From NCBI GenBank assembly GCA_950295325.1, contig OX485806.1, positions 57,779,169-57,843,168 on the forward strand: 64,000 nt of DNA. Direction: 5' to 3'. Below the pieces are notes generated by a model. That model had not been told where the DNA came from and made no database searches. It worked only from the letters and a program-made list of their open reading frames with translations. A program made the position numbers and the translations under genes. The stretch comes from Polytrichum commune. Lineage: Eukaryota; Streptophyta; Polytrichopsida; Polytrichales; Polytrichaceae. Below are positions 1,740 to 49,040 of this stretch, piece after piece (positions within the stretch are counted from its first letter, which is position 1; each line of letters begins with the position of its first letter).

Positions 1740-2460
1740 TGTTCTCCACTCACATAGAAATGTCGTCCGCACCCCATCCAATGCCCTTTGGTAGAGATGA
1801 TAGGCAACAATAATATAGTGACGGCTATGGACTCTTAGCTTCCCTCCATTCATTTTCGCCCAACCCTTCGGGCATTTTTGGAATGCTAAAGAACTCGGCA
1901 GTGTAGACATACCATAATGGAACTATTGTAATAAAAAATAAATTTTCATCCGGAAATTCATCGTCAATGTCCACCGTGCCCACCTCTTTAGACAATTTTA
2001 AGAGGCAGTCAACATGCTTGTGTAATCGGCCGGGCTTGTAATTTTTAGTGTAATCTAAGCCTTCCACGAGCAAAATCCACCTTGCTACCCGACCACTAAG
2101 GTTAGGTTTATAGACCATATATTGGAATGCCAAATGGTCTACAAAGAAGTCTACAAACGGTCTTTGAGATCAACCTCATAGGGTTGGCACAGAGCTGCGC
2201 CTATAGCAATGGCAGAAACATCACAATAAACATGGAATGGTACATCCTATTCAAGAGGTATAAGGCATGGAAAAGAAATCAATTTGGTTTTGAGGGCATC
2301 AAAACCAACCTGACATTTGGGGGTGTACTCCTATTTTGTGTTTTTTTAAGTGAGGTTTGTTAAAGGGATTGTTGGTGTGGCATAGTCCTTCATGATGTCT
2401 TGGTACCATGTACGCGGTGATAGGATACATGTTATTCAGGAGAGGGGCTGATGGTCTATA
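1740..2460 (-). pseudogene. Ty3/gypsy RT end, RNase H and linker, inverted block
   Basis: Read on the minus strand this is the end of a Ty3/gypsy reverse transcriptase (TIPLTNL near 2370, then a GFDALKTKL word near 2300), the start of RNase H (FHVYCDVSAIAIGAALCQP near 2220-2170) and its end (SGRVARWILLVEGLDY and YKPGRLHKHVDCL, about 2100-2000). It finishes with the linker to the integrase zinc finger (YHLYQRALDGV near 1780). There are stops and frame changes, so it is dead. The adjoining integrase (2465-3561) lies on the opposite strand and its first residues would continue this linker, so the block appears to be inverted. The N-terminal RT, including the catalytic aspartates, is absent. Confidence 0.8.
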
Positions 2461-2464
2461 AAGG

Positions 2465-3561
2465 CGTTGCGTGTCTGATATAGAAGTGCCCTCCATCTTG
2501 GCCGCATGTCATGACAGTGCATGTGGTGGACATTTCTCGGGACTGCTCACAGGCCAAAAGATACTTAAGGCGGGTTACTTCTGGCTCGATTTGTTTAAAA
2601 ATGCTAAGGATTATATCAAAAAGTGTGATGCCTGTCAAAGGTATGCGAGGAATGACCTCCGCATTGAGATGCTACTTCATGTATCCTTACCTCTAGTACC
2701 TTTCGAGAAATGGGGAATCGATTATGTTGGAAAGGTTCACCTTCATTCCTCAAAAGGTATGGCATACATTATGGTGGCCACGGAGTATTTGACTAAGTGG
2801 GTGGAAGCTAAGGCAGTGAAGACTAACACGGCCACCAATGCCGCCACATTCATGTACGAAAACATCATCTTATGATTTGGGTGTTCCAAGATTTTGGTTA
2901 GTGATAGGGGACTCATTTCTTGAATTCTTTAATTCAAAAGATGACCGATAGGTTCCAGATAGACCATAAGAAAACAACTCCTTATCATGCGCAGACCAAT
3001 GGTCAAACAGAGCGTGTTAACGAGACATTGGTGAGTATCCTTCGCAAGACGATTCATGACTCTAAGAGGGATTGGGATGTCAAGTTGACAGCGGCATTAT
3101 GGGCTTATCGGACAACCTTCAAGGTGACGACTCAAGCCACTATATTCTCATTGGTGTACGGATTGGAGGCGACTCTTCCCATTGAGTTTGAGGTGGAGTC
3201 ATTATGAGTTGCCGTGAATTTGCGTCTCACGGATAGTCAATCACTAAGAGATAGACTAATGACACTTGAAGAGCTCGATGAGAGTAGAAGGAGGAGCGTT
3301 CAACATATCGAGGCCATCCAAAGGTGAAGGAAGATCACCTTTGACAAGCGGCATAAGACAAGGACTTTGAGGCCAGACATGATGGTGTTACTTCAAGATG
3401 TTAGGAAACTTGAGTTCCCAGGTAAGCTAGATACTGTGTGGTTGGGGCCGTACCTCATCCGTGAGGCATTTTCAAACAACTCACTGCAATCGGAGACCTT
3501 GAATGGGGAGAGCTTCCCAACTCGTACATCAGGCAGTCGGTGCAAGGAGTATAGGGCTTAA
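2465..3561 (+). pseudogene. Ty3/gypsy integrase, decayed
   Basis: Integrase of a Ty3/gypsy retrotransposon. An HHCC zinc finger is visible (CHDSACGGHFSG, then CDACQRYAR). The catalytic core has Asp at 2720-2722 (WGIDYVGKV), Asp at 2903-2905 (ILVSDRG) and Glu at 3010-3012 (NGQTERVNETL). It is followed by the long C-terminal tail (TVWLGPYLIREAF and a GSRCKEYRA end). Breaks: a TGA at 2873-2875, a frame change between the second Asp and the Glu, a TGA at 3205-3207 and a TGA near 3325. No LTR is recognised next to it. The family is clear; the clade is not assigned. Confidence 0.85.
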
Positions 3562-5889: not shown

Positions 5890-6740
5890 AGAAAACCCAG
5901 ATTTTACTGACGTAAAAAATGACCAGTCGCTTCGGACAAGCAGTAAAGTCTGGTCATAGTAATGTCGGACAAGACGTTCCCAATGGACACGTTCCCAATG
6001 GCAGTGAAGTTTGGGGTGCTCCGCGTGCTTCACTTCATAAAGTCATGTCCTACTTCACTATGCCTCGTCAATATAAGCAACATAATACACGTCACCATAT
6101 AACTCTATCTAGTAATCTCGGACAAGTCATGTAGGTGTGTACTAACTTTTGCACTTCACTACACAAAGTCATACATGTGAAATGAAAAAAAATCTCCATA
6201 TCACTCCCTCTAGTAATCTCGGACAATAACGAAGGAGATCCATAACTTTACGTAGTAAGTGCGTGTGACTTATTATAGTAAACAAATCCGGCAATGACAT
6301 AGAATTCTCACTTTATGGCGTAATATCCATTTTACTATTCACTACACAAAGTCATCTTACGGGTAATAAATTGAATTCTCCGCGTCAGTGCCCTTAGTAA
6401 TCACGGACAGTAATGCATGACATCCATAACTCGGTATAGTAAATGCATATGACTGGTTTTAGTAAACATCTCCGGTAATAGCATATATTTCTCGTTGTTT
6501 GGCGGATGGACCTACTTTACTATGTGTAGTAACTTCTATGTCAACAATTAGTATTTGGCTTACTTTGTGGAGTCATATGGTTGTCATATGTCATTATTGT
6601 GTATAACTGGTAGTGAACTTTATATGGCTTTGCAAAGTGACATGTTCTGGATGCATATGATTGTACTTACTACAACTAGTAACATGAGGTCAACTCATCA
6701 CAGTTAGATGTTAATGGCATGCACAAAATAATCTGCTTAG
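5890..6740 (+). repeat. CACTA subterminal repeats, left side
   Basis: Short degenerate motifs recur: TTCACTACACAAAGTCAT (near 6156 and 6340), AGTAATCTCGGACAA (near 6110 and 6212) and ACGTAGTAA or GTATAGTAA-like words. Subterminal motifs of this kind are transposase-binding sites in CACTA elements. That role is known for the class and inferred here. Confidence 0.65.
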
Positions 6741-7139
6741 TCATACTAACAATACTATGCTGAGTCATCTAATGGATGGTCTCTTCACTTTGAGATGCAA
6801 GTTGATTCTATAAACTAACATTCATTTACGACATACAATGAAGTGCATAATACATTCCTCCACCAAGTGCAGTCACACAAACATGGTTCCAATGTTCTAC
6901 TACCAAATTCATAAGGGTACAAATAGTATGTCATTCATGTTCCACATTTCACTACTAGCAATGATAAATACTACACTCCGAGGTTCTATAAGTCTGAATA
7001 TCAACATTGCTCTACAAGTCCACACTACACTCACGCAGGTGCATACAACCTAACACAATCATTTGGCCAATCTAGAGAAGGAGAAACAAACAAGTCATAA
7101 ATGTATAACCGGGTTGAACACAAGTACCAAACTCCTCAC

Positions 7140-23198: not shown

Positions 23199-26100
23199 CT
23201 AGCTTCTGCCATATGGATGATACCGTCCATGACTGCTACTACCACTAGCACTGTAACCCCTGTTGCTACCATAGCTTCCTCCATATCCGCCACTTGAATT
23301 GTATGCTCCACCATAACCTCCACCGCTGTAGCCACCATAGCCCATAGTCCCATACCCATCTCCACCATCCCCATAACCACCTAGCATACCGCCACCATAT
23401 CCACCACCAGAGCCATAACCAAGGCCACCTCCATAACCTCCACCTACACCCGAACCATAGGTATTCACACCAAGACCTCCACCATAGCCACCACCATAAC
23501 CACCACCTCCGTATCCACTCCCATAACCTCCACTGTATGCCCCACCCCCATATCCTCCCCCTCTTCCTCCATACGTACCTCCACCTGACCTATATGAGCC
23601 GCCATAGCCTGAACTTCCAGTTCCACCATAGCTTCCATCTCCATATCCCCCATACCCTCCTGAAAGTGCACTGTACCCAGCACCACCCCTTCCACCAGGG
23701 TATCCACCACCAGGATTGTCTTGAATAGCACGTTTTGGTTCAGCTTTTTTAATCTCAACCTGTTGACACAAACAAATACTGTTGTCAGGACAAAAAACTT
23801 CAAAATCAAAAGATACAAAGATGAACTATTGATTGATTACACAAACTGCTCTTCTAGAAGTTGCTCAAATAAGTCATCAGGTCCACAAACAATGGTGCAA
23901 CTCTGAAAAGGAAGACAAGTGTCCATAACAGATTCTGGAAAACTTTCGATATAACATCATATTAAATGTACATATCTCACATTATAGTTATACTCAGAAA
24001 GATCACCTCACTACACACCAAATGGCCTTACAATATTATTTCTTGCAAAAACTGTAAAGGGGTTTGCAACATTATATCATTATGATACATAGAAGACCTA
24101 CCAATAAACCCAATATTTACCTGCTTTCCCCCAAGTTCATGCATTTTTCCATGCGCAAGTATATCTTCCACAATCTGCTCACTATCAAAAGTTACAAAGC
24201 CAAAGCCTCGTGATCGTCCAGTGCTGTGGTCTTGCATAATCTGATGCTCCACTATAGTTCCAAAGCCAGTGAAATAGTTTTTGAACTCCTCTGAAAGACA
24301 CATCAATAACCTAGTCACTTTCCATTTTAGATGCAAAAAAATTGTCAAGCCTAGAGACAATCAGTTGACCTGAACTAGTTGTCAAGCCTCACAGATGGGA
24401 TAGCCTGTAGACAATCACAAAAACAAGGTACAGCTAATGCTTGCAACCAATTCAGCATACCATCTGTTATAGAAGGAGGGATTCCTCCAACAAAGATCTT
24501 CTTAGTCTTTGGTCCTTTACTTGATGCCATATTTTCACGAGGGACTGATTTCTTGGCCTCCACCTGCAGCTAAATATAGTGAGATGCCCACACACCACTA
24601 GAGCTCCCAACCACCGTATATCAGTATCATCTATCATGCTGTAAGTCCAATTAGGTCTCCAAATTTATGATTATGAGAAGAGATAATAGTAACTACACAA
24701 CCACCTGCAAACCATTAATATGGAAGAGATGTCACTCACTGTTCTTCCATCAATAACGTGCTTGTCTAGCACAACAAGGTCGCAGACAGATGGATTGGCA
24801 AACGTGACAAATCCAAAACCCCGTGGATGACCTGTAGAGCGATCCTTCATGATTACAGCATCAATTATCTCACCGTACTTCTTGAAATGAGTTTGAAGGT
24901 TATCTGTATGCACCAGAAATGTAAGAGCTGGAACATGAACCATTGAAGAAGCTAATAGTGGAATACATTTCACAACCTAAACCTCCTGCAACCGTTACCA
25001 AGGAACCACAAATGACCACCTCCTTATTTTTCCTAGATATATTCAAGTTCTAGTGAACAAGTAATGGCAAACCAGATAACAGGATCTTGAAAGCTGCAGC
25101 CAAGTTAAGCGAAACTCTAATGTGACAATGCAAGATGATTACAGTGGTCTAGTGTTACAGTATTGATGACATGCTCCAGATGCCATACAAACATGAACAA
25201 CTGCCCTGATCAGCTCAACACCTCATGAGCAAAAATTACTTCCAAAAAGGAAGCTAGAATTCCTTTACAGAATCCTCAGAAATCCAGTCGATATGAGTCT
25301 GAAGCACTACAGATTCAGATGAATAAAATCTTTCTGCCTGTTCGATGAAAGAAATAGGCATTACCAAACTTAGCTATCCTCTGGCTGAAGAGTATAAACA
25401 TCAACTCCCATAGAGTCATGAGCGTACAAGCAGTTATCTCTTTACACCAGGCAATACGTGATAAAACAGCAGTCACAGCATTTTCTCTCTTGAGAAAATT
25501 ACACACCAATAGACAAAAAATGCGATCATGTGAACAGACGTCAGGGCACACATTTGAAGATTACTCCCTATGCATAGTAAAAAAAAATACGAACTGTAGC
25601 AGGAAATGAGTCATCTTAAGCCTTGACTTCTAGAATTTTGAGTAACAAATCATGTCTTGCGCAGTGTGACTCAAAGTGGAAAGGGCCAAAACAGACACTC
25701 ATGCAACGATATGCACGGAAACATGAATAGTGAGGTAGGGAGTGGGACATATAAAAAGAATAGAAAGAAACTCTTTCTGAAGCATATCGATAACTTGTAG
25801 GGGAGGTCAGGACGGGAAAGAAATACGTGCCTGTAGATGTATCCCATGACAAGCCGCCGATGAAGATCTTCCCTCTATCACGCGAACGGGGAGTGCATTA
25901 GCTATAAAATTTACGATGACTGCTGACCAGACTAGGGCTACCTTCCATGCGAAACCCCGGCATACTTGCAACAAGAGACTCTCGTGCTGCTTCATACGGA
26001 CTAAGTATACGACTAAGTCTTAAAGTAGAGCTAGGGCGACTATCAACTAACCCTGAATTGGATGATTTTCCTCCGGAGGTGTTCGGTGAACCCTTCTCTT

Positions 26101-26305
26101 CTATCAAAGAGTCCTTGGATGAACCGTTCTGAAGGTTGACGCTCTGCTCATGGTATTCATCGCCGTGCTCAAGAGGTTCGTCATCCTCGACCGCGTACTG
26201 CTGCTGCTGCTCTTCGTCGTCATCCACGTCATCGTGCTCCACAGTTCCGTTTAAGTCGGAAGCGACTTCCTGCATCCTCTCTTCCGCTCCCCCTGCCTCC
26301 ATCAC
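23199..26305 (-). CDS. RNA-binding protein with two RRMs and a Gly/Tyr-rich tail (hnRNP A/B-like)
   Basis: Six exons: 26305-25998, 25874-25831, 24903-24740, 24563-24461, 24290-24121 and 23759-23199. Phases fit and give 449 residues. Residues 1-102 form an acidic, low-complexity N-terminus (EEQQQQYAVEDDEPLE). RRM1 (about 104-175) has RNP2 KIFIGGL and RNP1 RGFGFVTF. RRM2 (about 193-265) has RNP2 KIFVGGI and RNP1 RGFGFVTF. The tail (about 280-440) is a long run of GGYGG-type repeats and ends SSHGRYHPYGRS. Architecture and the RYHPY end match the plant hnRNP-like family that includes Arabidopsis At3g13224 and At1g17640 (from memory). Expected role: binding nuclear or shuttling mRNA. The start ATG opens the only long frame; a second ATG follows directly. 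A TAA in frame after exon 1 is removed by a 123-bp intron. Intron 2 seems to use a GC donor (AG|GCACGT). No disabling mutation seen. Confidence 0.93.
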
Positions 26306-26890
26306 CGACTGTAAGAAAAACAGCGGCTACAAGCTGAAATTGACCGCCTATTCAACTATTTCTTCCTTTCTCACCTCCGGTACCAGCCCTGCCGCTTGTG
26401 CTCCTCCTGCTAGTGACCTGTGCTTCCCTTTTAACAACGGCCGGAGGACACTCTGGCTTTTCTTATGCCAGTTCGTTGCCCACCGGCTTCGTTGAGCCAA
26501 GTCTCTGCTTCTCTTGGCACCGCATCAACCCACGACTGTAACAAAAGTGCACAAAAGACCCGAAAAGTACCGACCGCACAACCGAAACTATCCCTCGCCC
26601 TACCGAAACCCTCAACTTCGTTTAACCAAGTCTCGAAAGAGTTCCCCTCAAGCTCACAACCTGGCCATAGAGTCTCCAGATAATACAGTCCGCGGGAGGG
26701 CAGCGTCTACTGAGGAGCCGGGACGGGATGCTGGTTTTCGATTTGAGCTTAAAAGTCAAGAAGGGGCAATCGCGACTTCCTGCACCTCACTTCCTCGTCC
26801 CCAAGCTGGACTTAGAAGTAGCTTCTCCCTTTGCCCACCGCTGCCCCAGCCATGGCCTTTTTCAATCCGGACCGCCCGCCTCTAATGGCC
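26306..26890 (-). promoter_or_regulatory. 5' flank / promoter region of the RRM gene
   Basis: GC-richer than the surrounding spacer, consistent with a 5' UTR and promoter. No clear TATA box or other element was recognised. Plus-strand open frames here (26136-26495 and 26514-26885) have no domain and are regarded as chance. Confidence 0.4.
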
Positions 26891-35226: not shown

Positions 35227-36130
35227 TTGGTTGACAAGGCCTCCTATGGTAGAACGAACAACATTCAATTTGGTGTCAATGGACCAAATGAGAATTCAAC
35301 AAATAATATTATGGTTTCATTGGAGCAACTCCAAGGTACTCGTGGGGATGCTAAGAAACATGGGCCTCCTCCAAACCAAATTTATGGTATGTTGGCGAGG
35401 TATAAGTATATATTCATTAATGAGTTGTGTCAAAAAGCTACCGCGAAGAAGTGAAAAACAACTTTGCTTGACGAGAGATTGAGTTCTTGAACTATGTGGT
35501 GATAAACAAAATTGGTAGACGGACATGAGGAAGGTCAAGGCAGTCCAAGAGGGGAAGTGGCCCTTAATCCAAAAAGGGCTTAGGTCACTGTTTGGCCTAG
35601 CCAATTACTACCGCCGCTTCATTTGAAATTATTCTAATAGTGGGATGAGGCTTGTCACCAAACCTTTGGGGAGCTTACAACCAAGTTGTCTTCCCCACGC
35701 GCACTTAAGTTTGAGGAGTTTGAAAAACCTTTTGACTTGCATACAGGGGCGAGTGACTTTACCATTGGCAGATTGTTGATGCAAAATGGATGGCCATTAC
35801 ATATGAGAGCATGAAACTTGATGGTTGTCAAAAAAAATGGCCGACTCATGAGAATTTTTTTTTTGCCGTAGTCCATTGCTTGAAGACGTGGCGACATTAT
35901 TTGGGGTCATACAAAGCAAAGGTCTACATAGACAATGTGTCCTTGAAGACAATGAGATACAAACCCAAGTAATGCCAAACCATTGCGGTGGCACGAGACC
36001 TTGGCATTTATGAAGGTGGATTTGATCCACAAACCGGATCGTGACAATGTGGTGCCGGATGCGCTAAGTAGACGAGAAGAGTTCCAAGCAATGAAAATCA
36101 TCCAAACCTTATGGCTAATGTTTATCATTG
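35227..36130 (+). pseudogene. Chromovirus RT end and RNase H, catalytic RT core deleted
   Basis: The start (ARYKYIFINEL, near 35395-35425) matches the N-terminal edge of the RT region. The next recognisable motif (LNYVVINKIGRRTDM, then LRSLFGLANYYRRFI, 35490-35625) is downstream of the YxDD box. About 150 expected residues, including the catalytic aspartates, are missing between them. RNase H follows: a TGASDFTIG word near 35750, FFAVVHCLKTWRHYLGSYKA near 35860, DNVSLKTMRYKPK at 35930-35970, and KPDRDNVVPDALSRREEF near 36030-36090. Multiple stops and frame shifts. It is non-functional. Confidence 0.85.
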
Positions 36131-36484: not shown

Positions 36485-38395
36485 GAATCCCCCTCCGCGG
36501 TTAGGTGGGTGATGCCCCCCTGGCCTTACATGGATAGTAGGGTTGGGGTGAGAATTTACCTTTGCCGCGCTCCCTCCATTCTTAAATTGAAGAATGTAGG
36601 ATTAAAAAGGTTACCGATTGACTCCCATCTGGGCTTGGCGATGGTTGGTGCAAAACCCCTACTCCAATGCTTCGCCGCCCACAACACCAACTCGTACACG
36701 CCAACTTTGAATGGACGAACCTCTTCTCATAAGGCAACAGACACCCCTTTCGCTTAAACAACCACAACTTTTGGTCACAAACTTCAATTGGAACAATTGT
36801 TAATAATATGAAGAGTTTTCAACAAGAACTATAACTCATTAAATTATCAAAGCAACTGGATGGATCTTCTTAAAGATATGAGCTTACAAAGTCTGCTCTT
36901 AGAATTTAAGAGGCAGATGGAATACCTTCATTTAAACATCCATAACTTTTATTTATTAAATTAGATTCCAGCAAGCTTAGATTTTCTGGAAACCTTAAAA
37001 TTAGATCTACCACTGCCCCAAATATCAAAACAACTACATGCGTCCTCTTGCGGGTATGAGCTTACAAAGTCAACTCTTATATTTTAAGAAGCAGTAGGGA
37101 TACCTTCATTCCAACGTTCATAATTCTCACTCCTTAAATCTAATTGTGACAATCTTATACCTTTAAGAAAACTAACAACAAGAACTATAACACATTTAAA
37201 TATCAAAGCAACTAGATTATTTCTCTTTTAGTTATGCGCTTGCAAAGTCATTATTTGTAGTTTGAGAGGCAGCTGAAACACCTTCATTAAAACAATCATA
37301 ATTTTCACACATCAAATTAGATTTTAGCATGCTTACACATTCTAAAAAACTAATAACAAGACCTATAACACACATAAATACCAAAGCAAGTGAATGACTT
37401 GTCTTTTAGTTATGCGCTTGCAAAGTCAACGCTTATAATTTAAGAGGCAGCTGAGACACCTTCATTCAATCACTCATAATTTTTGCTCCCTAATTCTGAT
37501 TCTAACTATCTTAGGTTTTTTTCAAAGCTAACATAAAGGGCTACATTCAATTAAAATTTGGTGACTAAATTGTAATTTTTATGTCCACTACACTTGCTTG
37601 GAAGTGGTACAACTATTGATGGGTGTGTTAAAAAATACACTACATTGTCTCAAGAATTCCAACTACAAGAATTCTAACTTTTGACTATATTGAATGAGTG
37701 AGGATGTTTCGTCCTTCTAACTAAAATTCTAGAGGGTTTCTCTGTGTTAAATGAAAGGAGAAGAGGGGATTTTTATCTCCCTTCAAATATAGGGTTGGGC
37801 CCCTTCCCCTTTCCACTCACCGAGGGGTCTCATTCCTTGAACGGTGGCAACCAAGCCCTCAGTGGTGAAAATGGGAGAAGGGATGCCACCTCACACCCTA
37901 TTTGCTCAAGCCTTTAGAAAGATTTTGCCATTTTTGTTTGAAATTCATTTTTGGCTGGCAAGGGTGGCAACATGGCCCCCTTGCCCTAGTTGGCAAAATT
38001 CTTTCTTAGCCGCTTTTGGAATTACCTTTGTTTTGTTGCTGGTTGACTTTTGCTTGCTTGATTTGGTTGTTCCTAAGTTAACCTACCTACTAACTAGCCC
38101 ACTACTTTCACGCTTCCAATTTGGGTAAAGGACATTTCCCTTTTATCCCTTCGGTTTCTAATTTCTAGTTGCCCAAGAATTTTACCTTAAGGGTAAAACA
38201 CCCCTAGCCAACCTTCCTTAATCTAAATTATTATTTGCTAAGTTTCCCTAGTTCTAATCTAATGATTTTGGTAAAACACCTCAATTGTGAGCCAAATTGC
38301 CGTTGGGGGCAATTTTGACACTCACAGTTGTCTTTCATGGTGGCTTATACAATGCGTTCCAACCTACTAACCTAGATATTTAGGGGGTACAATTA
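36485..38395. other. Foreign 1.9-kb stretch replacing the integrase core
   Basis: Neither strand encodes integrase here. The stretch begins C-rich, contains a short plus-strand frame (36482-36757) without a domain, then the 178-bp tandem repeats, then C/T-rich sequence to about 38395, where the integrase C-terminal tail resumes. It may be an insertion coupled to a deletion. No terminal repeats or target duplication were recognised. Confidence 0.6.
36846..37557. repeat. Four-unit tandem repeat, 178-bp period
   Basis: The word ATCAAAGCAACT and its variants occurs at 36846, 37024, 37202 and 37380, each exactly 178 bp apart. Each unit continues with GAGCTTACAAAGTC or GCGCTTGCAAAGTC, a TTTAAGAGGCAG word, CACCTTCATT and CATAATTTT. 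Units differ at many positions. Confidence 0.92.
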
Positions 38396-40360: not shown

Positions 40361-42750
40361 AAAGTCCCACCTGGCAATTGCCATTATTACACATTGGGAT
40401 ATTTTCAAATTAGGTGTGGTTAAGATTGCAACCAAGAATTCCAAAATTTTAATTTTGTTTAGACTAAAACAAAATTATGCAACAAAATAGAAAATTGATA
40501 TAGAGAAAAACAACAAGGATGGCAACCAGTTTTTGGGATAATCTTAAAGGATATCACCCTTGATAATCTTTGCAAAATTTTATGTGAGCATAACAAAAAA
40601 TCAATATTCCAAGCCTAGTGTCTTCAGGTCCACAAATCTTTCATGATAAGAGTCGATCTTTAGTGTCTTCCACAATAATATGCTATATTATGAATCATAC
40701 ATTATGATATAGAATAAAATAATATATTGGAAACAAAACCAATTAGGACAACAAAAATCAATATGCACAATCCATAGAAGATTTTATCATAAATATGTTT
40801 TTACACGACCATCGTAGTAGTAATCTTCAACCACAATTTGATGCTTAAATAATGAAAATAAAAAAATAAATCATATACCACACCCCATGTACACTCAATG
40901 GCCCTATTGTATACACCAATTTCATTTCACCAACATTCCATTAAAATATATTTCAATAAAGAAAGTGGTAAAAACTACTTAACACAAGGTCCTAGATGGA
41001 TCGTCTATTTGCAAGCATAACCTCTTTTTCTGGACCAACTACATTATTTTCAACCTTTGCAAATAATGTTGACCACTACTAGGTAAACCTTATCATCCCA
41101 TTACACAACATGACTAACTTTACTTACCAACATCCACCCCTACTAAAGACCGTGGGAGTATTTTTACCTCAATGTTTGGTTCACATGTGCACTTTATTGA
41201 GTATTTTATGACATGTTATTATTGGGATTGTATTTGAACATTACACTTACAATTCTAATTTCTTTGCCATTATTTTTCTAGAGTCTAATAAACCAAAAGA
41301 TGATATTCTTGCAATCTTGAACAATAATATATGACACCAAAACAAATAGAACTATAAACAAATGATTTGCACATACAAATCATGTTAGTGCAATACCTCA
41401 ACATTGAATGGAATGCACATATGCATGATGTAGCATTCCAATCGTAATGTGTTTAGACATTAAAGAAACATCATCCAATTGGCCAAAAAAATTAAAAGTT
41501 TATGATTAATGCATCTAGCATGTCAAATTACAACTCCCAAATTGTGTGCCATCCTACTATATTATAAATTAACAAATATGCAACCCCATCATTGTTTCTT
41601 CTTCTGTAGCTACAACAACAATTTTTAAAGTAGTTGCACAACATCATTCTAGGCTCTTGCAATCTTTGTTGTTCATAAAATCCCTAGGCTCAAAATTTGG
41701 AGAAACACTTATTGCATCCCTCTTAATTAATGGTTGCATATGTTTACAAATGTTAAGAATTGTAGCAAGTGTGTTATGTTCAATGGAGTCCATATATTTT
41801 TTGGCTTATTATATAAAATAATAAAATACAAATAGTAATGGATGATGGTAAGGCATCCTATACAAATAGATGGGTAATTCATGTTGTACATAGGATGCCT
41901 TACCAATACATATCATTAAACTTAGTAGTTCCTAGTTCAACCTAGGTGTATTGGTTTTGGACTTACTTTGAAGATACCAATACCAATAATCACTATGAAC
42001 ATATTATCTTTCACCTTATCTAATTTTCTATCTACCAACTTCATTTTTAACCTTTCTTTAATCATCCCTCTGTACCCGTCACATAGTTGTATTTGGTGGC
42101 AAATACTAGTACAATATTTGGATGTTTGACTCAAATATCTACTCAAGAGGAAGCTTAATGAATTCCAACGAGGAAATTGGGGAAGAGACCGGTAGAACTA
42201 TAAAAACATAACCAAAAAATCAAGCCAGGGAGGCCGGGTCATTTAACCTTTTCTTTGTAAAGTATTTGTGCCTTGAAAAAATAAATTCAATTAACTTATA
42301 TATATGTATATATTACCATTTTTTGTTCTCATTGTCTAGCTCAAAGTGTCAATATAATTATTGGTTATGTGATTTCCCCGTAATAATGAGACCATAGTTG
42401 GGCCTTTATAATTTTCCTCACCTTACCATTGGTTTGTCCACCAATTTACCCTCATTATCTACATGGTTTTCTTGATTAGGGGAGTCCACCTTTGACTTCT
42501 CATAGAAAGTTTTATTGGTTGCAATATAGTTATTTTTTTGCCCTCTGCCAAGAATTGATTTATATCTTACCGTTTATTTAAAGTCCAAAGCCTAGACTAG
42601 CAATCAATCATTTCTCTTATAATAAAAAATTATATTATTTTCCTATTTACTTATATTTGGTGTTCATTTGGTAAAATTAACTATATTTTATGGTTAATAA
42701 TATTCTTGGATAATTGTGATTATTTTTAATGGCCCTACCATCCATACTCA
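40361..42750. other. Gene-free AT-rich spacer
   Basis: No gene recognised over about 2.4 kb. It contains a strong hairpin at 41847-41904 and a TATATATATGTATATATA run near 42296-42313. If the next retroelement has a 5' LTR it should lie here, but none was recognised. Confidence 0.5.
41847..41904. repeat. Hairpin, 15-bp perfect arms
   Basis: GGTAAGGCATCCTAT (41847-41861) and its exact reverse complement ATAGGATGCCTTACC (41890-41904) enclose 28 bp. It is not near a coding region. Function unknown; it may be the remnant of a MITE. Confidence 0.85.
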
Positions 42751-42899
42751 ATCATAATGAGCCTAATGCATGCCATTAAGGACTTGCAAATAATATTGGG
42801 CAATCACGGTTGCCTTTGTCATTTGGTTTGGCAGATTTGGCATTTACATCGTTGCAAGGAACAACTTCTAATGATAGTGAGGTACCTACAAGGGAAGAC

Positions 42900-43320
42900 A
42901 TGCTAAAAGGCTTAGCCCGCAAGGTGTTGGAAATTCCTCTGTTTTCTGGGTTCTAATTGCAACGGCCTGATATTGATGCAGCTTTGGTTTATCATATGGT
43001 AAGAAAGATGTTCCAAAAAACAATGCAAATACTTGCCAATGCAGTCATGAGGGAGACTGAGGAGTTATCTATGGTTGATGATGAAGAAGACATTAAACAT
43101 GCGGCTATTAGAAGGGCGGTTGATGCTTTGCGTTGATGGAAAGATTGGGAGAAAGAGCCTTTTGCTGAAGCACAATTCAATGGTGGCTTGACTTTAAAGC
43201 ACGATTCACTTGGTTCATTAAGTGTTAAAGATATGACAACAATTTGTTTGGCTAGCATTTCAGCTAGAACAACATAAGAATGACTGCAATTCTCACCGGG
43301 CGTTATGAGGTTATCAAATG
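42900..43320 (+). pseudogene. Region upstream of the protease, gag-like position
   Basis: A frame reads RPDIDAALVYHMVRKMFQKT and then RETEELSMVDDEEDIKHAAI, broken by TGA at 43134-43136 and others, before the protease. Position suggests the end of gag or a gag-pro linker, but no zinc knuckle or capsid motif is recognised. Confidence 0.4.
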
Positions 43321-43339
43321 TTAACAAAGTATTTTTGGT

Positions 43340-43740
43340 GGTTCAATATAGTTTTTCTAGTGTATTTCCACAAAAGATGTTGTTTGATATAGGGGCACAA
43401 TCGGTGATGCTAGGAATGTCACTAGCAAAGAGTTTGGGATTTAGGGCCAAATATCTAGATCTATATCCATTTAATATTGCTATATCATTAGGAGGCATAA
43501 AACACCCAATGGACTCACCAAGACAACTTCACGACTTCAATTTAATATTGGTACTGATGCATACATCCACATTTCTTTAAGGTATGTGGTAACGAATACA
43601 ACTATTTATGACATTTTATTGAGACAACAAACATTATATCCCATTGGGTTTGGTTATGATACTTAGATGGAAGAGACATGGTTTCGACCAAGATGGTCGC
43701 AAAGAGATGGACGGAAGGAGACTCTACTTGTTATCTTTGG
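43340..43740 (+). pseudogene. Retropepsin-like protease of the methyltransferase element
   Basis: The active-site region reads MLFDIGAQSVMLGMSLA, with Asp at 43386-43388; the usual D(S/T)GA box is DIGA here. Downstream, after a frame change near 43545, come SLRYVVTNTTIYDILL and QQTLYPIGFGYD (about 43570-43660), the distal part of the protease domain, then a basic ETWFRPRWSQRDGRKE stretch. The flap and hydrophobic strands fit a retroviral-type aspartic protease. It would process the polyprotein; this copy is broken by a frameshift and stops. Confidence 0.8.
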
Positions 43741-44029
43741 TAGTCTGGCATCCACCACTTAAAGCCAAACGACAATGTTTGGTTGTATTGTAGAGTCATT
43801 TGCAACTGGAAATTTTCTTCTTGTAGGAAACAGGTCGGCTATGGACTCACCTCCACCTTCGGATGTAGAGATACTTTCAATGTTAGATCAACTTGAAGGT
43901 CATCCAAAAGATCCTATACCTCCCTGAAAATCATTGAAAGAATTGTCTCAACGTTGTGGAGAATTGGTATCAAAGGTAAAACAAAAACTATGGGAACCAA
44001 ATTGTATCCAATCATCCTGACAAAAGCTT

Positions 44030-45040
44030 GTAGAGCTTCATGACGAATCTGGGAGCATAGCGTTGGTGGAGCTTTTTGCTGGACTTGGTACAAGATTGGC
44101 TGCGGCATTGGAGGCATGATTGGTCATTCAGACATATACGTATGTTGATAACAATATTATCGCACGCAAAAGTGCAATGCACCATCTTCAACAACTACGA
44201 ATGTGATATCCAAGACAATTGTCTGCGAGTGCTATACAAGGTTATATGTCGCGCATTCTAACAGACATTACTTTAATTGGCTATGAGGACTTCAAAAGGT
44301 TAGGACGAGTGGATATTGTTGTTGCCAGATGGCCTTGTCAAGGACATTCACGAGCCGAGTTAGGTCAAGGACTCCAAGATCCACGCTCCGGTTTATTTTG
44401 GGAGTTCCTACGGTTGTTGCAATGGTGGCAATGCAATCAAACTATACCAATAGCTTATATTTTTTAGAATGTGCTTCCAATGGGAATTATGAGTGCTCAA
44501 GTTCAAAATGATGCACATGTTGTATGCCAACATCTTGGGAAACCAATGGATGCCGCGACTCTAGGGTTTTATGCGCATCAATTGAGGTGGAAGTGGACAA
44601 ATTTGGCCCACATGTCTGGCATTTCAGCAACGTTGAAGCTCATTCAACGTATAGATGGAAGACAAGTTGATCACATCTCAAATGTGGGTCGTTATGCCCA
44701 ACCGGTGTTGCAAATTGATCAATATCCATTGAGTTTAGTATACCATGTAAGGCAATCACGGTTGGCATTGCCTACATTGGTTAGTTTTCCATAGTCTTTT
44801 GTTTCTTGTGATGGCGGACCAGGTATGGTGTTTGATACCAACACACGAACACTTGAGGAACCATGTGCTGATGAGCGTGAACGCGCAATGGGATTTCTTA
44901 CAGGCACGACATGTGGACCCGATGTGACAAAGTCACAACGTCATCACGTCTTGGAACAAGCCATGGACCTAACATCTATAGTATGGTTCATGGGAATTTG
45001 CCCCGCTGCTCAAAGATACAACAAAGGTGGCCTTGAAGGA
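44030..45040 (+). pseudogene. C5-cytosine DNA methyltransferase domain inside a gypsy polyprotein
   Basis: All in one frame. Motif I: LVELFAGLGTRLAAALEA (44063-44116), the FxGxG S-adenosylmethionine loop. A motif II-like stretch TYTYVDNNIIARKSA. Motif IV: VVARWPCQGHSRAELG, with the catalytic Cys codon at 44336-44338. Motif V: GLQDPRSGLFWEFLRLL. Motif VI (ENV): PIAYIF then TAG at 44465-44467 and NV, so the Glu codon has become a stop. Motif VIII region: LGFYAHQLRWKWTNL. Motif IX/X region: ERERAMGFLTGTT and VLEQAMDLTSIV. Other stops: TGA 44117, TGA 44204, TAG 44792. No frameshift is seen across about 1 kb, so decay has been mainly by point mutation, three of the stops being one transition from a plausible sense codon. 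It sits between protease and RT, in the same orientation. The expected role is de novo methylation of cytosine in DNA. Confidence 0.92.
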
Positions 45041-45522
45041 CATATGGGGGAAAATGCTTCAGACCAGGGAGTAGAGAGTGTTGTACCGACGGCTATGCAG
45101 AAGATTGTCCATACAAATGCCAAGATGTGGCATGATAGCATACAAGTCTGGGAGCAAGTCCTTGCGAAGATAAGGGCCCAAGATGTTTTTGAGTGGCTTG
45201 TTGCGGATGACCTGTGAGGAAAGCGAGTGTTGGCAACATTAGCCCAAGACATATGCATGGAAGATGCCAAACAAAAGTTCATGCATGTATTTTATGTAAG
45301 AGAAAATCCATTTCTTATTGCAAACCAAAGCCAATTGATGATTTGGTTGGGGTTGCCAATAGAGATGGATTGATTGGAGTCACCGAGTGTGTGGATGCAT
45401 CTATGGGCTTGGAAACGGGCAATGGTGCATTTTCACATAATTAGCAACCAGAGGTTGTGCCAACACCAAGTTATGGGTCCCTACAATAGAAGAAAATTAT
45501 TCCAGTTCACAATGATTGGGAA

Positions 45523-46540
45523 ATGGACATAGGAATGGGACTTATTGGTGCAGAGTTACGAAAGGTACAAGCATTTATACGCTCATATAGGGAATGTTTT
45601 GCTTTTAAAGTCACTGACTTGGAGGGTTACAAAGGCAAGCCGGTTAGGATACAATTGGAGGACGATCATCCAGTTTTTAGACGTCCTTACAAGCTAAGTC
45701 TCTCGGAAAGAAAGGGGGTCAAATTGCGGTGTAAAGAATTACTTAATGCGCGATTGATATAACTATCGGATGGAGAGTATGCATGTGCCACTGTAATGCT
45801 GGCAAAGAATGATACATTTGGCAATTGGATAGAGCGTAGAATGTGCGGAGATTACCGTCTAGTTAATATGAAGACAAAGTCAAATAGATATAGGATGCCA
45901 ATGCTTGAAAAGTTATTTGATGCGCTTGGAAGAGCAAGAGTCTTTAATAGTTTGGATTTGAGGTCGGGTTACCACCATTAAGACTAGAAGATAGGCCAAA
46001 AATTGCATTTTGAGGAGTTGATGATGATGGAAGAGATTTGTTATTTCATTGGAAATTCTTACCTTTTGAACTTAAGAATGCTCCGGCAGAGTTCGAATGG
46101 GTTATAAATCAAGTCTTAAAAGGGTTACCATTTTCTCGGTGTCATATTGATAATGTGATTATATTCAGTGATACACCACAAGAGCATGTGAAACCTTTGC
46201 AACAAATTTTTGAAAGGTTGCAATCATGGGGTCTTCGTCTACATCATGGCAAATGCAAATTCTTCCATGACCAGTTACCTTACTTAGGGCATATGATTAC
46301 GCCAGGAGGTTTGGGGGGTACAGGAGGCGAAGGTGGAAGCTTTGAACAAGATTCCTATTCCTAAAGACATGTCAAGGCTGAGAACTTTCATGGGTTAGCA
46401 AATTACTATCGTAGGTTTGTACATGGGTTTAGTGTTTTGGCTAAACCTCTTACTTTGTTGACACGAGCTAATCAAGATAGGATATGGGGTCTTGGTCAAC
46501 AATAAGCATTTGCAACCTTAAAGCAAACACTAGGTTCGGC
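45523..46540 (+). pseudogene. Reverse transcriptase of the methyltransferase element
   Basis: N-terminal part in one frame (45523-45981): YRECFAFKVTDLEGYKG, then FRRPYKLSLSERKGVKLRCK, a TAA at 45760-45762, and MCGDYRLVNMKTKSNRYRMP and FNSLDLRSGYHH. After a frame change, 46020-46364 continues with LLFHWKFLPFELKNAPAEFE and the active site HIDNVIIFSD, where the usual YxDD has His for Tyr and Asn for the second Asp (46152-46154). FFHDQLPYLGHMITPGG follows. A further broken stretch with ANYYRRFVHGFSVLAKPL runs to 46460. Loss of the second catalytic Asp and the stops make it inactive. Confidence 0.88.
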
Positions 46541-46544
46541 ACCA

Positions 46545-46928
46545 GTGTTGAGGCGACCAGATGCTAGACAAGCATTCCAACTCTATACATATTGGAGTAT
46601 GGTGGGAATTGGTGACGTTTTAACTCAAAAGGATGATGATGGTAAGGAGTATGTCATTGCTTATGCTTCACGAAGTAACAACAATGTAGAGGCCAAATAT
46701 TCATCTTACGAGGGAGAGTGTTTAGTAGTAGTATGGGTTGTGGCACATTTTTGTGCATATCTTTATGGCCAAAACTTTACGCTTGTGAGAGATCATCAAC
46801 CTTTGAAATGGTTAATGGAGTCTGATAAGCTGATAAGGAAACTAGCTAGATGGGCCTTATTACTGCAAGAATATGACTTTGAGATAGTTCACAAGGCAGG
46901 GGTGCAAAATATGGATGTCGTGGTTTAA
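46545..46928 (+). pseudogene. RNase H of the methyltransferase element
   Basis: Open for 127 codons: GIGDVLTQKDDDGKEYVIAY, KYSSYEGECLVVVWVVAHF, LVRDHQPLKWLMESDK and LARWALLLQEYDFEIVHKAG. The first catalytic Asp (TDxS) is replaced in YTYWS. It ends with a frame break at about 46918, just before the conserved GLSRNP box, which is readable in the next frame. Confidence 0.88.
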
Positions 46929-48140
46929 GTCGCAATCCGAACCCATTGCAAGATGGCATGACCGGGGCTAGATGGCATGGTAACTCAGATCAAGAAGTTG
47001 TGCCAGGGTGGCATGTGTCATCTTATTTGGCATGGATGGAAGGAAAATCCAGCCAAGTTATGACGGAGACTTTGAGAGAGGTTGTAAATGAGGACTCGGA
47101 TGAGGGAGGACCTAAAGTCGCCATGGATGTGTGGAAAGACAATGGGCTTCTATGTCGTCTACAACGTAGGGAGTTTCCGCCAAATATCACATATCAAGAA
47201 CGAAATCATATAGCTGATAGGATGGCTAGATTTTGTTGGAAAGATGACCTCATCTTTCGAATATGGTCAAATTGAACACGAAAAGTAGTTCCCAGGCCTA
47301 CCCAACGTTTTCAATTAATTCAACAAGTTCATGAAGACTTGGGTCATTTTGGAGTACGACGCACGCATGCAATGTTACGTGGTCAATATTGGTGGATAGG
47401 CATGCATCAAGAGGTGACGACCTATGTGGGGAGATGCGAGGTTTGTGATCAGGTTAGATTGAGCTTCAACACTCTATCTCCACAATTACGGCCATAATCC
47501 ATTATGGGATTGGGCTATAGGTGGAGTCTTGATTTTGCAGGACCATTGATGACCACATCACGAGGTGCCAAATATTTCCTTGTAATGGTGGAACATTTCA
47601 GTAAATGGATTGAATTGGTTGCTCTACCGCAAAATTCCTCTGAATTAGCTGCAACGGCTTTTCTAGACCGGGTTTTGGCTAGATTTGGAGCTCCTGCAAA
47701 AGTTTTGACAGACCAAGGAAGGGAATTTGTTGGATCTTTTGAAGAGTTTTGTACTCAAACTTTGATTGATCACCGTACAACATCTAGAGACCACCCATAG
47801 GCCGATGGATTGGCAGAGAGAGTGGTTTAGACTGTAAAGCATGGTTTGCGCAAGTACGGGTTGTTGGCAGGCAACCATCGAGATTGGGATCTTAAGTTGC
47901 ATTGGAGAGCAATGGGTTATCATCTCAGTCGGCAGGCATCTTTTGCTTCTTATAGCCCGTACCAACTATTGTATGGCAGAGAGCCAGTGTTACCATCGGC
48001 GGTGAGAGAGAAATTGGATCCAATAGTTGATTTGGACGACCCAAGAATTTGGGCTCAAGTGCTACATGATCGAGCTGAGTATTTCCAAAGGTCCATGCCA
48101 ATGGCCATGGAGAACTTAGCAATTGCGCAACCATAAAACA
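46929..48140 (+). pseudogene. Integrase of the methyltransferase element
   Basis: A single frame from about 46929 to 48136. HHCC domain: HEDLGHFGVRRTHAML with C(E)VC at about 47439-47451. Core Asp 47531-47533 (WSLDFAGPL), Asp 47711-47713 (VLTDQGREFVG) and Glu 47816-47818 (ADGLAERVV), with 34 codons between the second Asp and Glu. Then SPYQLLYGREPVLPSAV. Stops: TGA 47273, TAA near 47498, TAG 47798, TAG 47828 and TAA 48134. The frame is otherwise continuous. It would insert the cDNA into the genome; this copy is inactive through stops. Confidence 0.88.
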
Positions 48141-48159
48141 CTTTGCGTTATGTGCGCAT

Positions 48160-48576
48160 TAGGACAAACCTTAACTTCGACGGTTCAAAGCAGGTGATTA
48201 TGTGTACTTACAACGTGAGGCACCAACAACCTTGGATGTCCGTGCTGGAAGAATTGTCTTACGAGTCAAAGCAATATTGCCTAGTGAGATTGTTTTTTTA
48301 GTGGGAATTGATGGACAAGAGTGTAGGGACAACATGAAGAATTGCACACCTTGTCACCTACCAATTGAAGGCTCTATAAATCCAGAGTTGGCAGTGGTTC
48401 CAAGTGGATATAGGTGTTTTGTTTGTGGGGAGCGTAAAGGCGAAACCACAATGTTGTTGTGTGATCAATGTCAGAGATGTTGGCATATGACATGTTTTTG
48501 GCTGCCATTGGTCAAACTCCCTGAAGGAGGTTGGATTTGTCCACAATGCAAAAAACGATCATTTTATACATCTTAG
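48160..48576 (+). pseudogene. Integrase tail and C-terminal PHD finger
   Basis: An open frame with no internal stop from about 48202 to TAG 48574-48576: GDYVYLQREAPTTLDVRAG (integrase C-terminal SH3-like region), VFLVGIDGQECRDNMKNCTP, then the PHD finger at 48415-48549. Zinc ligands in Cys4-His-Cys3 order: Cys 48415, Cys 48424, Cys 48460, Cys 48469, His 48484, Cys 48493, Cys 48538, Cys 48547. Spacing is C-2-C-11-C-2-C-4-H-2-C-14-C-2-C. The conserved Trp two residues before the last Cys pair is present (GGWICPQC), as is the LLCDQC core. PHD fingers read histone H3 tails. Here it ends the polyprotein, where chromoviruses have a chromodomain. Better preserved than the rest. Confidence 0.9.
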
Positions 48577-49040
48577 TCAAGAAGGTGTGGGTGATTTTTT
48601 TTCAGTGGATGGAGGACATGCTAATGTTGCAATATATTATGTTATAATATAAGCGGTGGGATTTGACATTGATGCTTGATTGAAGAGTAATTGGAGTCCA
48701 ACGGTGTTGGAAGCGATTAAGGATGGGGCTCAAATGCACCCAGCTTGCCCTTCAATTATAATTTGGCTCAAGTTGGCAATGAACAGTAGCCTACGAAAGG
48801 TCTTTTACTACATGTCGTTTCTACAAAGAGTTGATAGACATTGCATTGGTTCCATAAGACTGTGATGTTTTTCAAATACTAGTTGAGTTGCAAGGACGCG
48901 GTGCTCAGCTAGGGGGGCAATTGTGTGTCTTGAATGTCAAGTTGTTTTGTATTGAAAGCTTTTTAGGGTATGAGCAAGACGTAACTACACGACAAATTAT
49001 GGTAACGATATGTAGTGATACGACAACTTAAATCATTGCT
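48577..49040 (+). other. 3' non-coding part of the methyltransferase element (probable)
   Basis: No domain recognised; a 61-codon frame (48680-48865) is of unknown meaning. A purine/G-rich word ctaggggggcaattgtgt at 48908-48925 could be a degraded polypurine tract, which would place the 3' LTR start near 48920. This is speculative. Confidence 0.35.

What the first reader, a model, noticed from the sequence alone, without database searches (positions are those of the whole stretch)
44030..45040. Cytosine DNA methyltransferase embedded between protease and RT of a Ty3/gypsy element
Seen directly: in one frame, in the canonical order, motif I (ELFAGLGT), IV (WPCQGHS with the catalytic Cys), V (GLQDPRSGLF), a broken VI (ENV with Glu replaced by TAG), an AHQLRWKWTNL box and RERAMGF. 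It is preceded by a retropepsin DIGA box and followed by RT. Known: methyltransferase-bearing retrotransposons were reported in charophyte algae and dinoflagellates (from memory). Inference: such elements also entered or persisted in a land-plant lineage, where self-methylation of new copies could affect silencing or mutation. I know of no description from land plants.
Basis: partly seen in the sequence, partly recalled or inferred. Interest (0 to 1): 0.97.

Follow-up and report, generated by a model that had tools for sequence, protein, structure and literature searches.

The report
Plant retrotransposon with a DNA methyltransferase
A decayed jumping gene in a plant genome carries a DNA-methylating enzyme of the DNMT3 kind, and intact relatives in the same genome keep it, so a plant parasite appears to bring along the very tool that plants use to silence parasites.

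Summary
Window 44030-45040 is a degenerate C5-cytosine methyltransferase (PF00145, E 5.9e-8) in a Ty3/gypsy element: gag - protease - DNMT - RT - RNase H - integrase - PHD finger. It is no chance insertion. The genome gave 123 scored PF00145 matches; of the 20 best-scoring places fetched, 20 have the DNMT upstream of RT and 19 a protease before it; 2 of 20 have both long frames open. The window copy is a dead relic of a lineage with 2 copies among 62 scored. Profile and fold place the enzyme with DNMT3; catalytic Cys and Glu persist in 20 of 20. Relatives occur in the liverworts Marchantia and Calypogeia. The host looks like an early-diverging moss. New here: the DNMT sits upstream of an in-frame UAG with the TMV-type leaky signal CAR YYA (19 of 20 copies; 1 of 1976 other TAGs in them). 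DNMT should be made with Gag; RT, integrase and PHD by readthrough. Retrotransposon DNMTs are known (Klebsormidium, dinoflagellates); land plants and this layout I did not find in print. Activity is untested.

The parts
42729..43526 (+). gag C-terminal part and start of protease, decayed (29% to L001 ORF1 residues 316-569); N-terminal gag not detected at this copy
   Evidence: tblastn
43341..43601 (+). retropepsin block, DIGA box starting at 43386
   Evidence: translation
43511..45319 (+). protease end, linker and DNMT, 40% to L001 ORF1 residues 565-1145
   Evidence: tblastn, E 2e-137
44030..45040 (+). DNMT3-class C5-cytosine methyltransferase domain, degenerate: in-frame stops at 44117, 44204, 44465 (the Glu of ENV) and 44792
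   Evidence: Pfam; stops
45442..45450 (+). TAG followed by CAACCA (TMV-type CAR YYA), boundary of the gag-PR-DNMT and RT-INT-PHD frames
45457..45559 (+). long-range stem 12 nt 3' of the TAG (arms 45457-45468 and 45546-45559, alignment columns 16-27 and 105-118); partly broken in this decayed copy
45511..45978 (+). reverse transcriptase, N-terminal part
   Evidence: tblastn 70% to L001 ORF2
45975..46919 (+). reverse transcriptase and RNase H (RVT_1, RT_RNaseH)
46922..48169 (+). integrase region (rve core in 47498-47797)
48415..48549 (+). PHD finger at the C-terminus, downstream of integrase
   Evidence: Pfam E 1.9e-9; PDB sequence matches to PHD fingers
48705..48744 (+). noncoding stretch 88-93% identical in 15 of 20 copies of other lineages, function unknown
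48908..48917 (+). polypurine-tract-like GCTAGGGGGG, presumed start of the 3' LTR just behind it; no LTR pair found in the window
   Evidence: sequence; similar run read in L001; repeat search

Best explanation
The window holds a dead copy of a family of streptophyte Ty3/gypsy retrotransposons that captured a DNMT3-class cytosine-5 methyltransferase. SHOWN: intact members encode gag-protease-DNMT in one frame, then a UAG followed by CAR YYA, then RT-RNase H-integrase-PHD in the same frame. INFERRED from the known TMV signal: most ribosomes stop (roughly nine in ten for TMV), giving Gag-PR-DNMT, and the rest read through and add RT-integrase-PHD. INFERRED: the protease frees the DNMT inside the particle, so each particle holds more methyltransferase than RT, and it methylates the element's own newly made double-stranded cDNA, probably at CG as some other retrotransposon DNMT3s do in yeast, before or at integration. 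The PHD finger on the integrase side probably reads a histone tail and steers insertion, as chromodomains do in chromoviruses (recalled). Arriving already methylated would let a new copy blend into methylated chromatin, sparing host genes and avoiding recognition as foreign DNA. Confidence by layer: anatomy and family 0.97; DNMT3-class catalytic fold 0.93; programmed readthrough 0.85; enzyme active in intact copies 0.75; self-methylation of cDNA as its role 0.45.
Against: No activity, expression or methylation data. The 20 copies were the best DNMT scorers, so intactness and selection are flattered. DNMT is less constrained than RT-RNase H (A-B pN/pS 0.33 against 0.12). In the window 6 of 916 other TAGs are followed by CARYYA, more than the roughly 2 expected from base odds, so the motif alone is not rare enough at a single site. 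Some relatives have DNMT and RT in one frame with no stop (P0059, P0157, P0161), so the leaky stop is not universal in the family. Copies are not CpG-depleted beyond the window (0.71 against 0.47), no support for heavy self-methylation. The published yeast test of the Klebsormidium gypsy DNMT was inconclusive (PMC5890265).
Confidence: 0.6

Rival explanations
1. The DNMT acts in trans on the host genome or on RNA, not on the element's cDNA: it disturbs host methylation patterns, or modifies the genomic RNA.
For: High Gag-level expression would supply much enzyme; de Mendoza 2018 raises both kinds of effect (PMC5890265, read).
Against: Fusion to gag-protease places it in the particle by default (inference); the closest fold is the DNA enzyme DNMT3, while DNMT2 (RNA) scores only 0.0013-0.0058 in the profile search.
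Confidence: 0.2
2. The domain is kept for a non-catalytic role, such as binding the cDNA, and methylation is incidental.
For: DNMT is less constrained than RT; the Klebsormidium gypsy DNMT gave no methylation in yeast, a result its authors call inconclusive.
Against: Catalytic Cys and Glu are kept in 20 of 20 own copies and are in at least 90% of the 54 rows of alignment A3, which go down to 32% identity.
Confidence: 0.15
3. RT-integrase-PHD is expressed by splicing or re-initiation past the stop, as in Ogre elements (recalled), and the stop is not leaky.
For: The Marchantia gene model Mp_6g11220 (P0156) runs from DNMT into RT without a stop, as spliced models would.
Against: The TAG and the downstream frame are in register at the aligned position in 18 of 20 copies, and the six nucleotides after it fit the TMV consensus while varying within it.
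Confidence: 0.1
4. This is simply the known KnitGypsy-Dnmt3 family seen in land plants, by descent from a charophyte ancestor, with nothing new in layout.
For: Same superfamily, same DNMT class, DNMT in the Pol frame (PMC5890265); a weak Closterium match (P0168, E 4e-13 over 26% of the query); RT and DNMT trees congruent.
Against: No K. nitens sequence was among the named hits, so relation is untested; the paper's text does not mention a PHD finger and its one 'stop codon' passage concerns Symbiodinium (figures and supplements not seen).
Confidence: 0.35
5. Chance resemblance, or a host methyltransferase gene that inserted into this one copy.
For: The window copy alone is broken and could be misread.
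Against: 20 of 20 fetched places have DNMT upstream of RT, and an outside contig has the same layout.
Confidence: 0.01

Closest known systems
KnitGypsy-Dnmt3 of Klebsormidium nitens (de Mendoza et al. 2018, PMC5890265)
   Same: LTR gypsy element with a DNMT3-class domain in the polyprotein, multi-copy, conserved catalytic residues, purifying selection, streptophyte host (paper text).
   Different: Land-plant host; DNMT ahead of a conserved UAG CAR YYA, so apart from RT; PHD finger after integrase; several diverged lineages in one genome. Sequence relation not tested, and the paper's figure of the layout was not seen.
SymbioDIRS-Dnmt3 and SymbioLINE-Dnmt of Symbiodinium (same paper)
   Same: Retrotransposon-borne DNMTs; the DIRS ones are DNMT3-class and methylate CG de novo in yeast.
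   Different: DIRS and LINE elements, dinoflagellate hosts, reported as independent captures.
Plant DNMT3 genes with DUF3444 (Yaari et al. 2019, PMC6453930, passages)
   Same: DNMT3-type catalytic domain in non-flowering plants.
   Different: Host genes with a C-terminal DUF3444; no DUF3444 was found in the relatives scanned, which sit in gag-pol.
Plant chromoviruses and the lineages of the 2019 survey (Neumann et al., PMC6317226, passages)
   Same: Ty3/gypsy order gag-PR-RT-RH-INT; chromoviruses have a chromatin-reading domain after integrase (recalled).
   Different: PHD finger instead of a chromodomain, and a DNMT; neither PHD nor methyltransferase occurs in that paper's main text.
Tobacco mosaic virus type I readthrough signal (PMC2754532, passages)
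   Same: UAG followed by CAR YYA.
   Different: Retrotransposon gag-PR-DNMT/pol boundary; an added candidate stem 12 nt downstream.

Membership tests
C5-cytosine methyltransferase (PF00145) | motifs in canonical order with PC and ENV | tested here: met
   20 of 20 own copies keep Cys and Glu; the window copy matches the family but its Glu is a stop and one Arg is Gln.
DNMT3 class | closest to DNMT3 by profile and fold, motifs not permuted as in DRM | tested here: met
   order linear.
DNMT3 class | falls inside a DNMT3 clade in a tree with host DNMT3, DRM, DNMT1 | not tested
   No host DNMT3 sequence obtained; DUF3444 search gave 8 matches, no DNMT in the fetched flanks.
Plant DNMT3 gene (DNMT3-DUF3444) | DUF3444 after the methyltransferase | tested here: not met
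   None of the 27 sequences scanned shows DUF3444.
Ty3/gypsy LTR retrotransposon | gag-PR-RT-RH-INT order and LTRs | tested here: met
   Order; LTR pairs in 11 of 20 copies; none found for the window copy.
KnitGypsy-Dnmt3 | gypsy element with DNMT3 in the Pol frame | tested here: met
   Domain content as the paper's text describes.
KnitGypsy-Dnmt3 | common descent with the K. nitens copies | not tested
   No K. nitens protein among the named hits.
Chromovirus | chromodomain after integrase | tested here: not met
   PHD finger instead in the window and L001.
TMV-type programmed readthrough | UAG followed by CAR YYA, same frame continues | tested here: met
   19 of 20 copies plus L001, L022, window.
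TMV-type programmed readthrough | measurable readthrough | not testable with these tools
   Needs a reporter or ribosome profiling.

The most novel reading that the evidence does not exclude
Land plants host a diversified, recently active clan of gypsy elements that make a DNMT3-class enzyme at Gag level, by placing it upstream of a TMV-type leaky stop, so that particles carry far more methyltransferase than RT and every new copy is methylated on its cDNA before it integrates, under guidance of a PHD finger. The element would thus write the host's own silencing mark on itself as a survival strategy, and retrotransposons would be the most numerous source of DNMT3-type enzymes in such genomes.
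Probability: 0.35. Interest if true: 0.88.

Novelty: new variant of a known kind. Interest (0 to 1): 0.75.

Why it matters
DNA methylation is the standard plant weapon against transposons, so an element that carries and keeps a de novo-type methyltransferase is a direct test of who benefits from methylating a new insertion. In the papers I found, such elements are reported from algae and dinoflagellates. Intact, recent copies in a land plant, and relatives in Marchantia, a genetic model, make the question testable in organisms with genetics and methylomes. The leaky-stop layout makes a concrete prediction: methyltransferase at Gag level, RT and integrase at a small fraction of it.

Tried and rejected
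Chance match or one-off insertion: rejected. A search of viral contigs with alignment A2 found no relative. CpG depletion as a sign of self-methylation: not seen. Stem 3' of the stop: 93.9% of cells paired against 23-46% when slid, covariation score reached by 0 of 500 shuffles; but the number of pairs with change on both sides (2) was reached by 357 of 500 shuffles and further pair types (9) by 500 of 500, the two compensated pairs separate lineages, so few independent events, 6 of 22 rows break pair 19-115, and the 3' arm is coding. Energy z-scores: L001 -4.0, L014 -3.3, L019 -3.3, L003 -1.9, L022 -1.7, window -1.6. The stem is a lead, not a result. A pseudoknot was not searched for. Host DNMT3 gene for a tree: 8 DUF3444 matches, no DNMT in fetched flanks; absence is not shown, as flanks were short and only 123 of 353 PF00145 candidates were scored, nor were those 123 sorted into element and host gene beyond the 20 fetched. 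Copies of the same pol without DNMT: the search did not complete. A first dN/dS script failed on a text anchor and was rerun.

Early-diverging moss rests on LEAFY residues (the letters H and D for types I and II are recalled; the passages seen give only the sites); Polytrichaceae, because of seven large contigs, is a recalled guess.

Full report
Check of the observation. With X at its four stops it hits PF00145 at E 5.9e-8. Its best database relative, P0038, is 85% identical over 339 columns. The copy itself is dead: four stops in the domain, further stops and frame changes in RT and integrase, and N-terminal gag not detected in the window.

The element. L001, a 9285-bp contig of a bacterial MAG that is apparently misbinned, holds an intact relative: one open frame with gag, protease (PF13650, E 7.8e-4, below its cut-off) and DNMT, a single TAG, and the same frame continuing into RVT_1, RT_RNaseH, Integrase_H2C2, rve and PHD. 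Aligned to the window by tblastn, L001 covers gag to PHD from 42729 to 48573. The contig's ends repeat 127 bases, as expected from an element collapsed by assembly.

The genome. The window lies in a 408-Mb assembly with seven large contigs. PF00145 gave 123 scored matches out of 353 candidates, all above the cut-off; I counted by hand 18 in open frames of at least 1356 aa. Host genes may be among the 123. I fetched the first 20 of the list, that is the best-scoring ones, which favours intact domains. In 20 of 20 the DNMT lies upstream of pol on the same strand; in 19 the protease part of the query aligns before it (not in L012, which is rearranged); in 17 the pol alignment reaches the PHD finger (not in L003, L005, L012). 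Two of 20, L014 and L019, have both frames uninterrupted (1386 and 1047 aa; 1366 and 1048 aa). Partial LTR pairs were found in 11 of 20, the main piece 97.6-100% identical; L019 334 of 334. The 20 fall into two lineages, A (11) and B (9), about 62% identical in the DNMT. The window belongs to a third, represented by two copies above 80% identity to P0038 among the 62 scored of 704 candidates, both full of stops.

Selection. Pairwise counts gave DNMT pN/pS of 0.44 within A (55 pairs), 0.34 within B (36) and 0.33 between A and B (99); between A and B gag 0.29, protease 0.38, RT-RNase H 0.12, integrase 0.13. Synonymous change between lineages is near saturation. The DNMT is thus constrained about as gag and protease are, less than RT.

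The boundary. In 19 of 20 copies a TAG with CARYYA lies at the junction, 18 exactly at the aligned position and L010 one base off the aligned frame; in L009 the pol alignment begins 80 residues later and no such motif lies where expected. Among 1976 other TAGs on that strand of the same loci, one is followed by CARYYA; in the window, 6 of 916 others are. L001 has CAATCA, the window and L022 CAACCA, lineage A CAATCA, lineage B CAATTA or CAGTTA. Copies within a lineage are not independent, so the strength lies in four lineages that differ in the hexamer or its surroundings yet stay within the consensus. PMC2754532 (passages) states that CAR YYA is essential for TMV readthrough and reports values from 6-10% in transgenic plants to 32% in transient assays. 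Full-length relatives from databases end at the matching place in several lineages, though their DNA was not seen. A 12-bp stem begins 12 nt downstream; the controls for and against it are under tried and rejected.

Relatives. Protein searches gave 32, 118 and 36 hits (the last two scored only 8000 candidates each). Named ones are Marchantia polymorpha, Calypogeia fissa, a weak Closterium sp. NIES-53 and one bacterial MAG; most are unnamed metagenome proteins. A tree of 81 DNMT rows puts the window in a clade of 12 with P0148-P0152, own A and B in its sister clade with L001, liverworts in another, and the RH-INT type outside when used as outgroup (quick method). Those rows are 77 of the 168 proteins held (short or partial ones and P0134-P0138, which look bacterial, were dropped) plus window, L001, L014 and L019; P0157, P0059, P0161, P0168 and two more stay unresolved. 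An 11-row RT tree, several rows partial, agrees on the main groups.

What is known. De Mendoza et al. 2018 (PMC5890265; I read parts 1-4 of 7 and passages, no figures) described DNMT-bearing LINE and DIRS elements in Symbiodinium and a gypsy element in Klebsormidium nitens, with CG methylation in yeast for the DIRS enzymes and an inconclusive result for the gypsy one. A 2025 paper (PMC12344493, section 5 and passages) repeats this for streptophytes and dinoflagellates. The main text of the 2019 survey of plant LTR elements does not contain the words methyltransferase or PHD (PMC6317226). Searches for land-plant cases listed none, in an open-licence library only; the last asked for six terms at once and was strict.

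Host. Three LEAFY loci, one with KPKMRHY and two with KPKMRDY, fit the reported co-occurrence of both types in mosses outside Bryopsida (PMC6588583). Land plant is well supported; moss is likely; the family is a guess.

Judgement. Same kind as KnitGypsy-Dnmt3 in content, new in host and, as far as the text I saw tells, in layout: the methyltransferase on the Gag side of a leaky stop, and a PHD finger on the integrase side. That is a new variant of a known kind. What it does to DNA remains to be measured.

Noticed in passing
window 48705-48744; L001 about 6720-6790; own loci L002-L021: A roughly 40-nt noncoding stretch between the PHD stop and the polypurine tract is 88-93% identical between the window copy and 15 of 20 copies of other lineages, while the coding DNA of L014, L019 and L001 is about 68-72% identical to it. 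Possible cis-acting RNA or priming element.
   Followed up: partly
proteins P0165, P0166 (whole order); P0087, P0092, P0163 (parts of it): A second architecture with the DNMT between RNase H and integrase (RT-RH-DNMT-INT-PHD) in unnamed metagenome proteins; separate from the PR-DNMT-RT type in DNMT and RT trees. The domain sits at two different junctions.
   Followed up: partly
proteins P0157, P0059, P0161: Relatives with DNMT and RT in one frame without the stop.
   Followed up: partly
L022 (G000 C4 43284300-43293000): Second copy of the window lineage, with N-terminal gag present, a 2.9-kb insertion in the DNMT tail, and TAG CAACCA at the boundary.
   Followed up: yes
L001; P0003: What looks like plant or algal retroelement DNA filed in bacterial MAGs (Synechococcales MAG81, Obscuribacterales); L001 has 127-bp identical ends, as from a collapsed high-copy element. 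A trap for annotating bacterial methyltransferases.
   Followed up: no
own genome, LEAFY loci L033-L037: Three LEAFY loci, one with KPKMRHY and two with KPKMRDY, useful to place the unnamed host.
   Followed up: yes
window 2429-3255 (+) and 35531-35677 (+): Fragments of other gypsy elements (25-47% to L001 ORF2).
   Followed up: no
window about 23199-26326 (-): Open frames that look like exons of a glycine-rich RNA-binding protein with RRM-like motifs (read; motif recalled).
   Followed up: no
window 36820-37475: Three copies of a repeat spaced by 178 bp, 68-73% alike.
   Followed up: no
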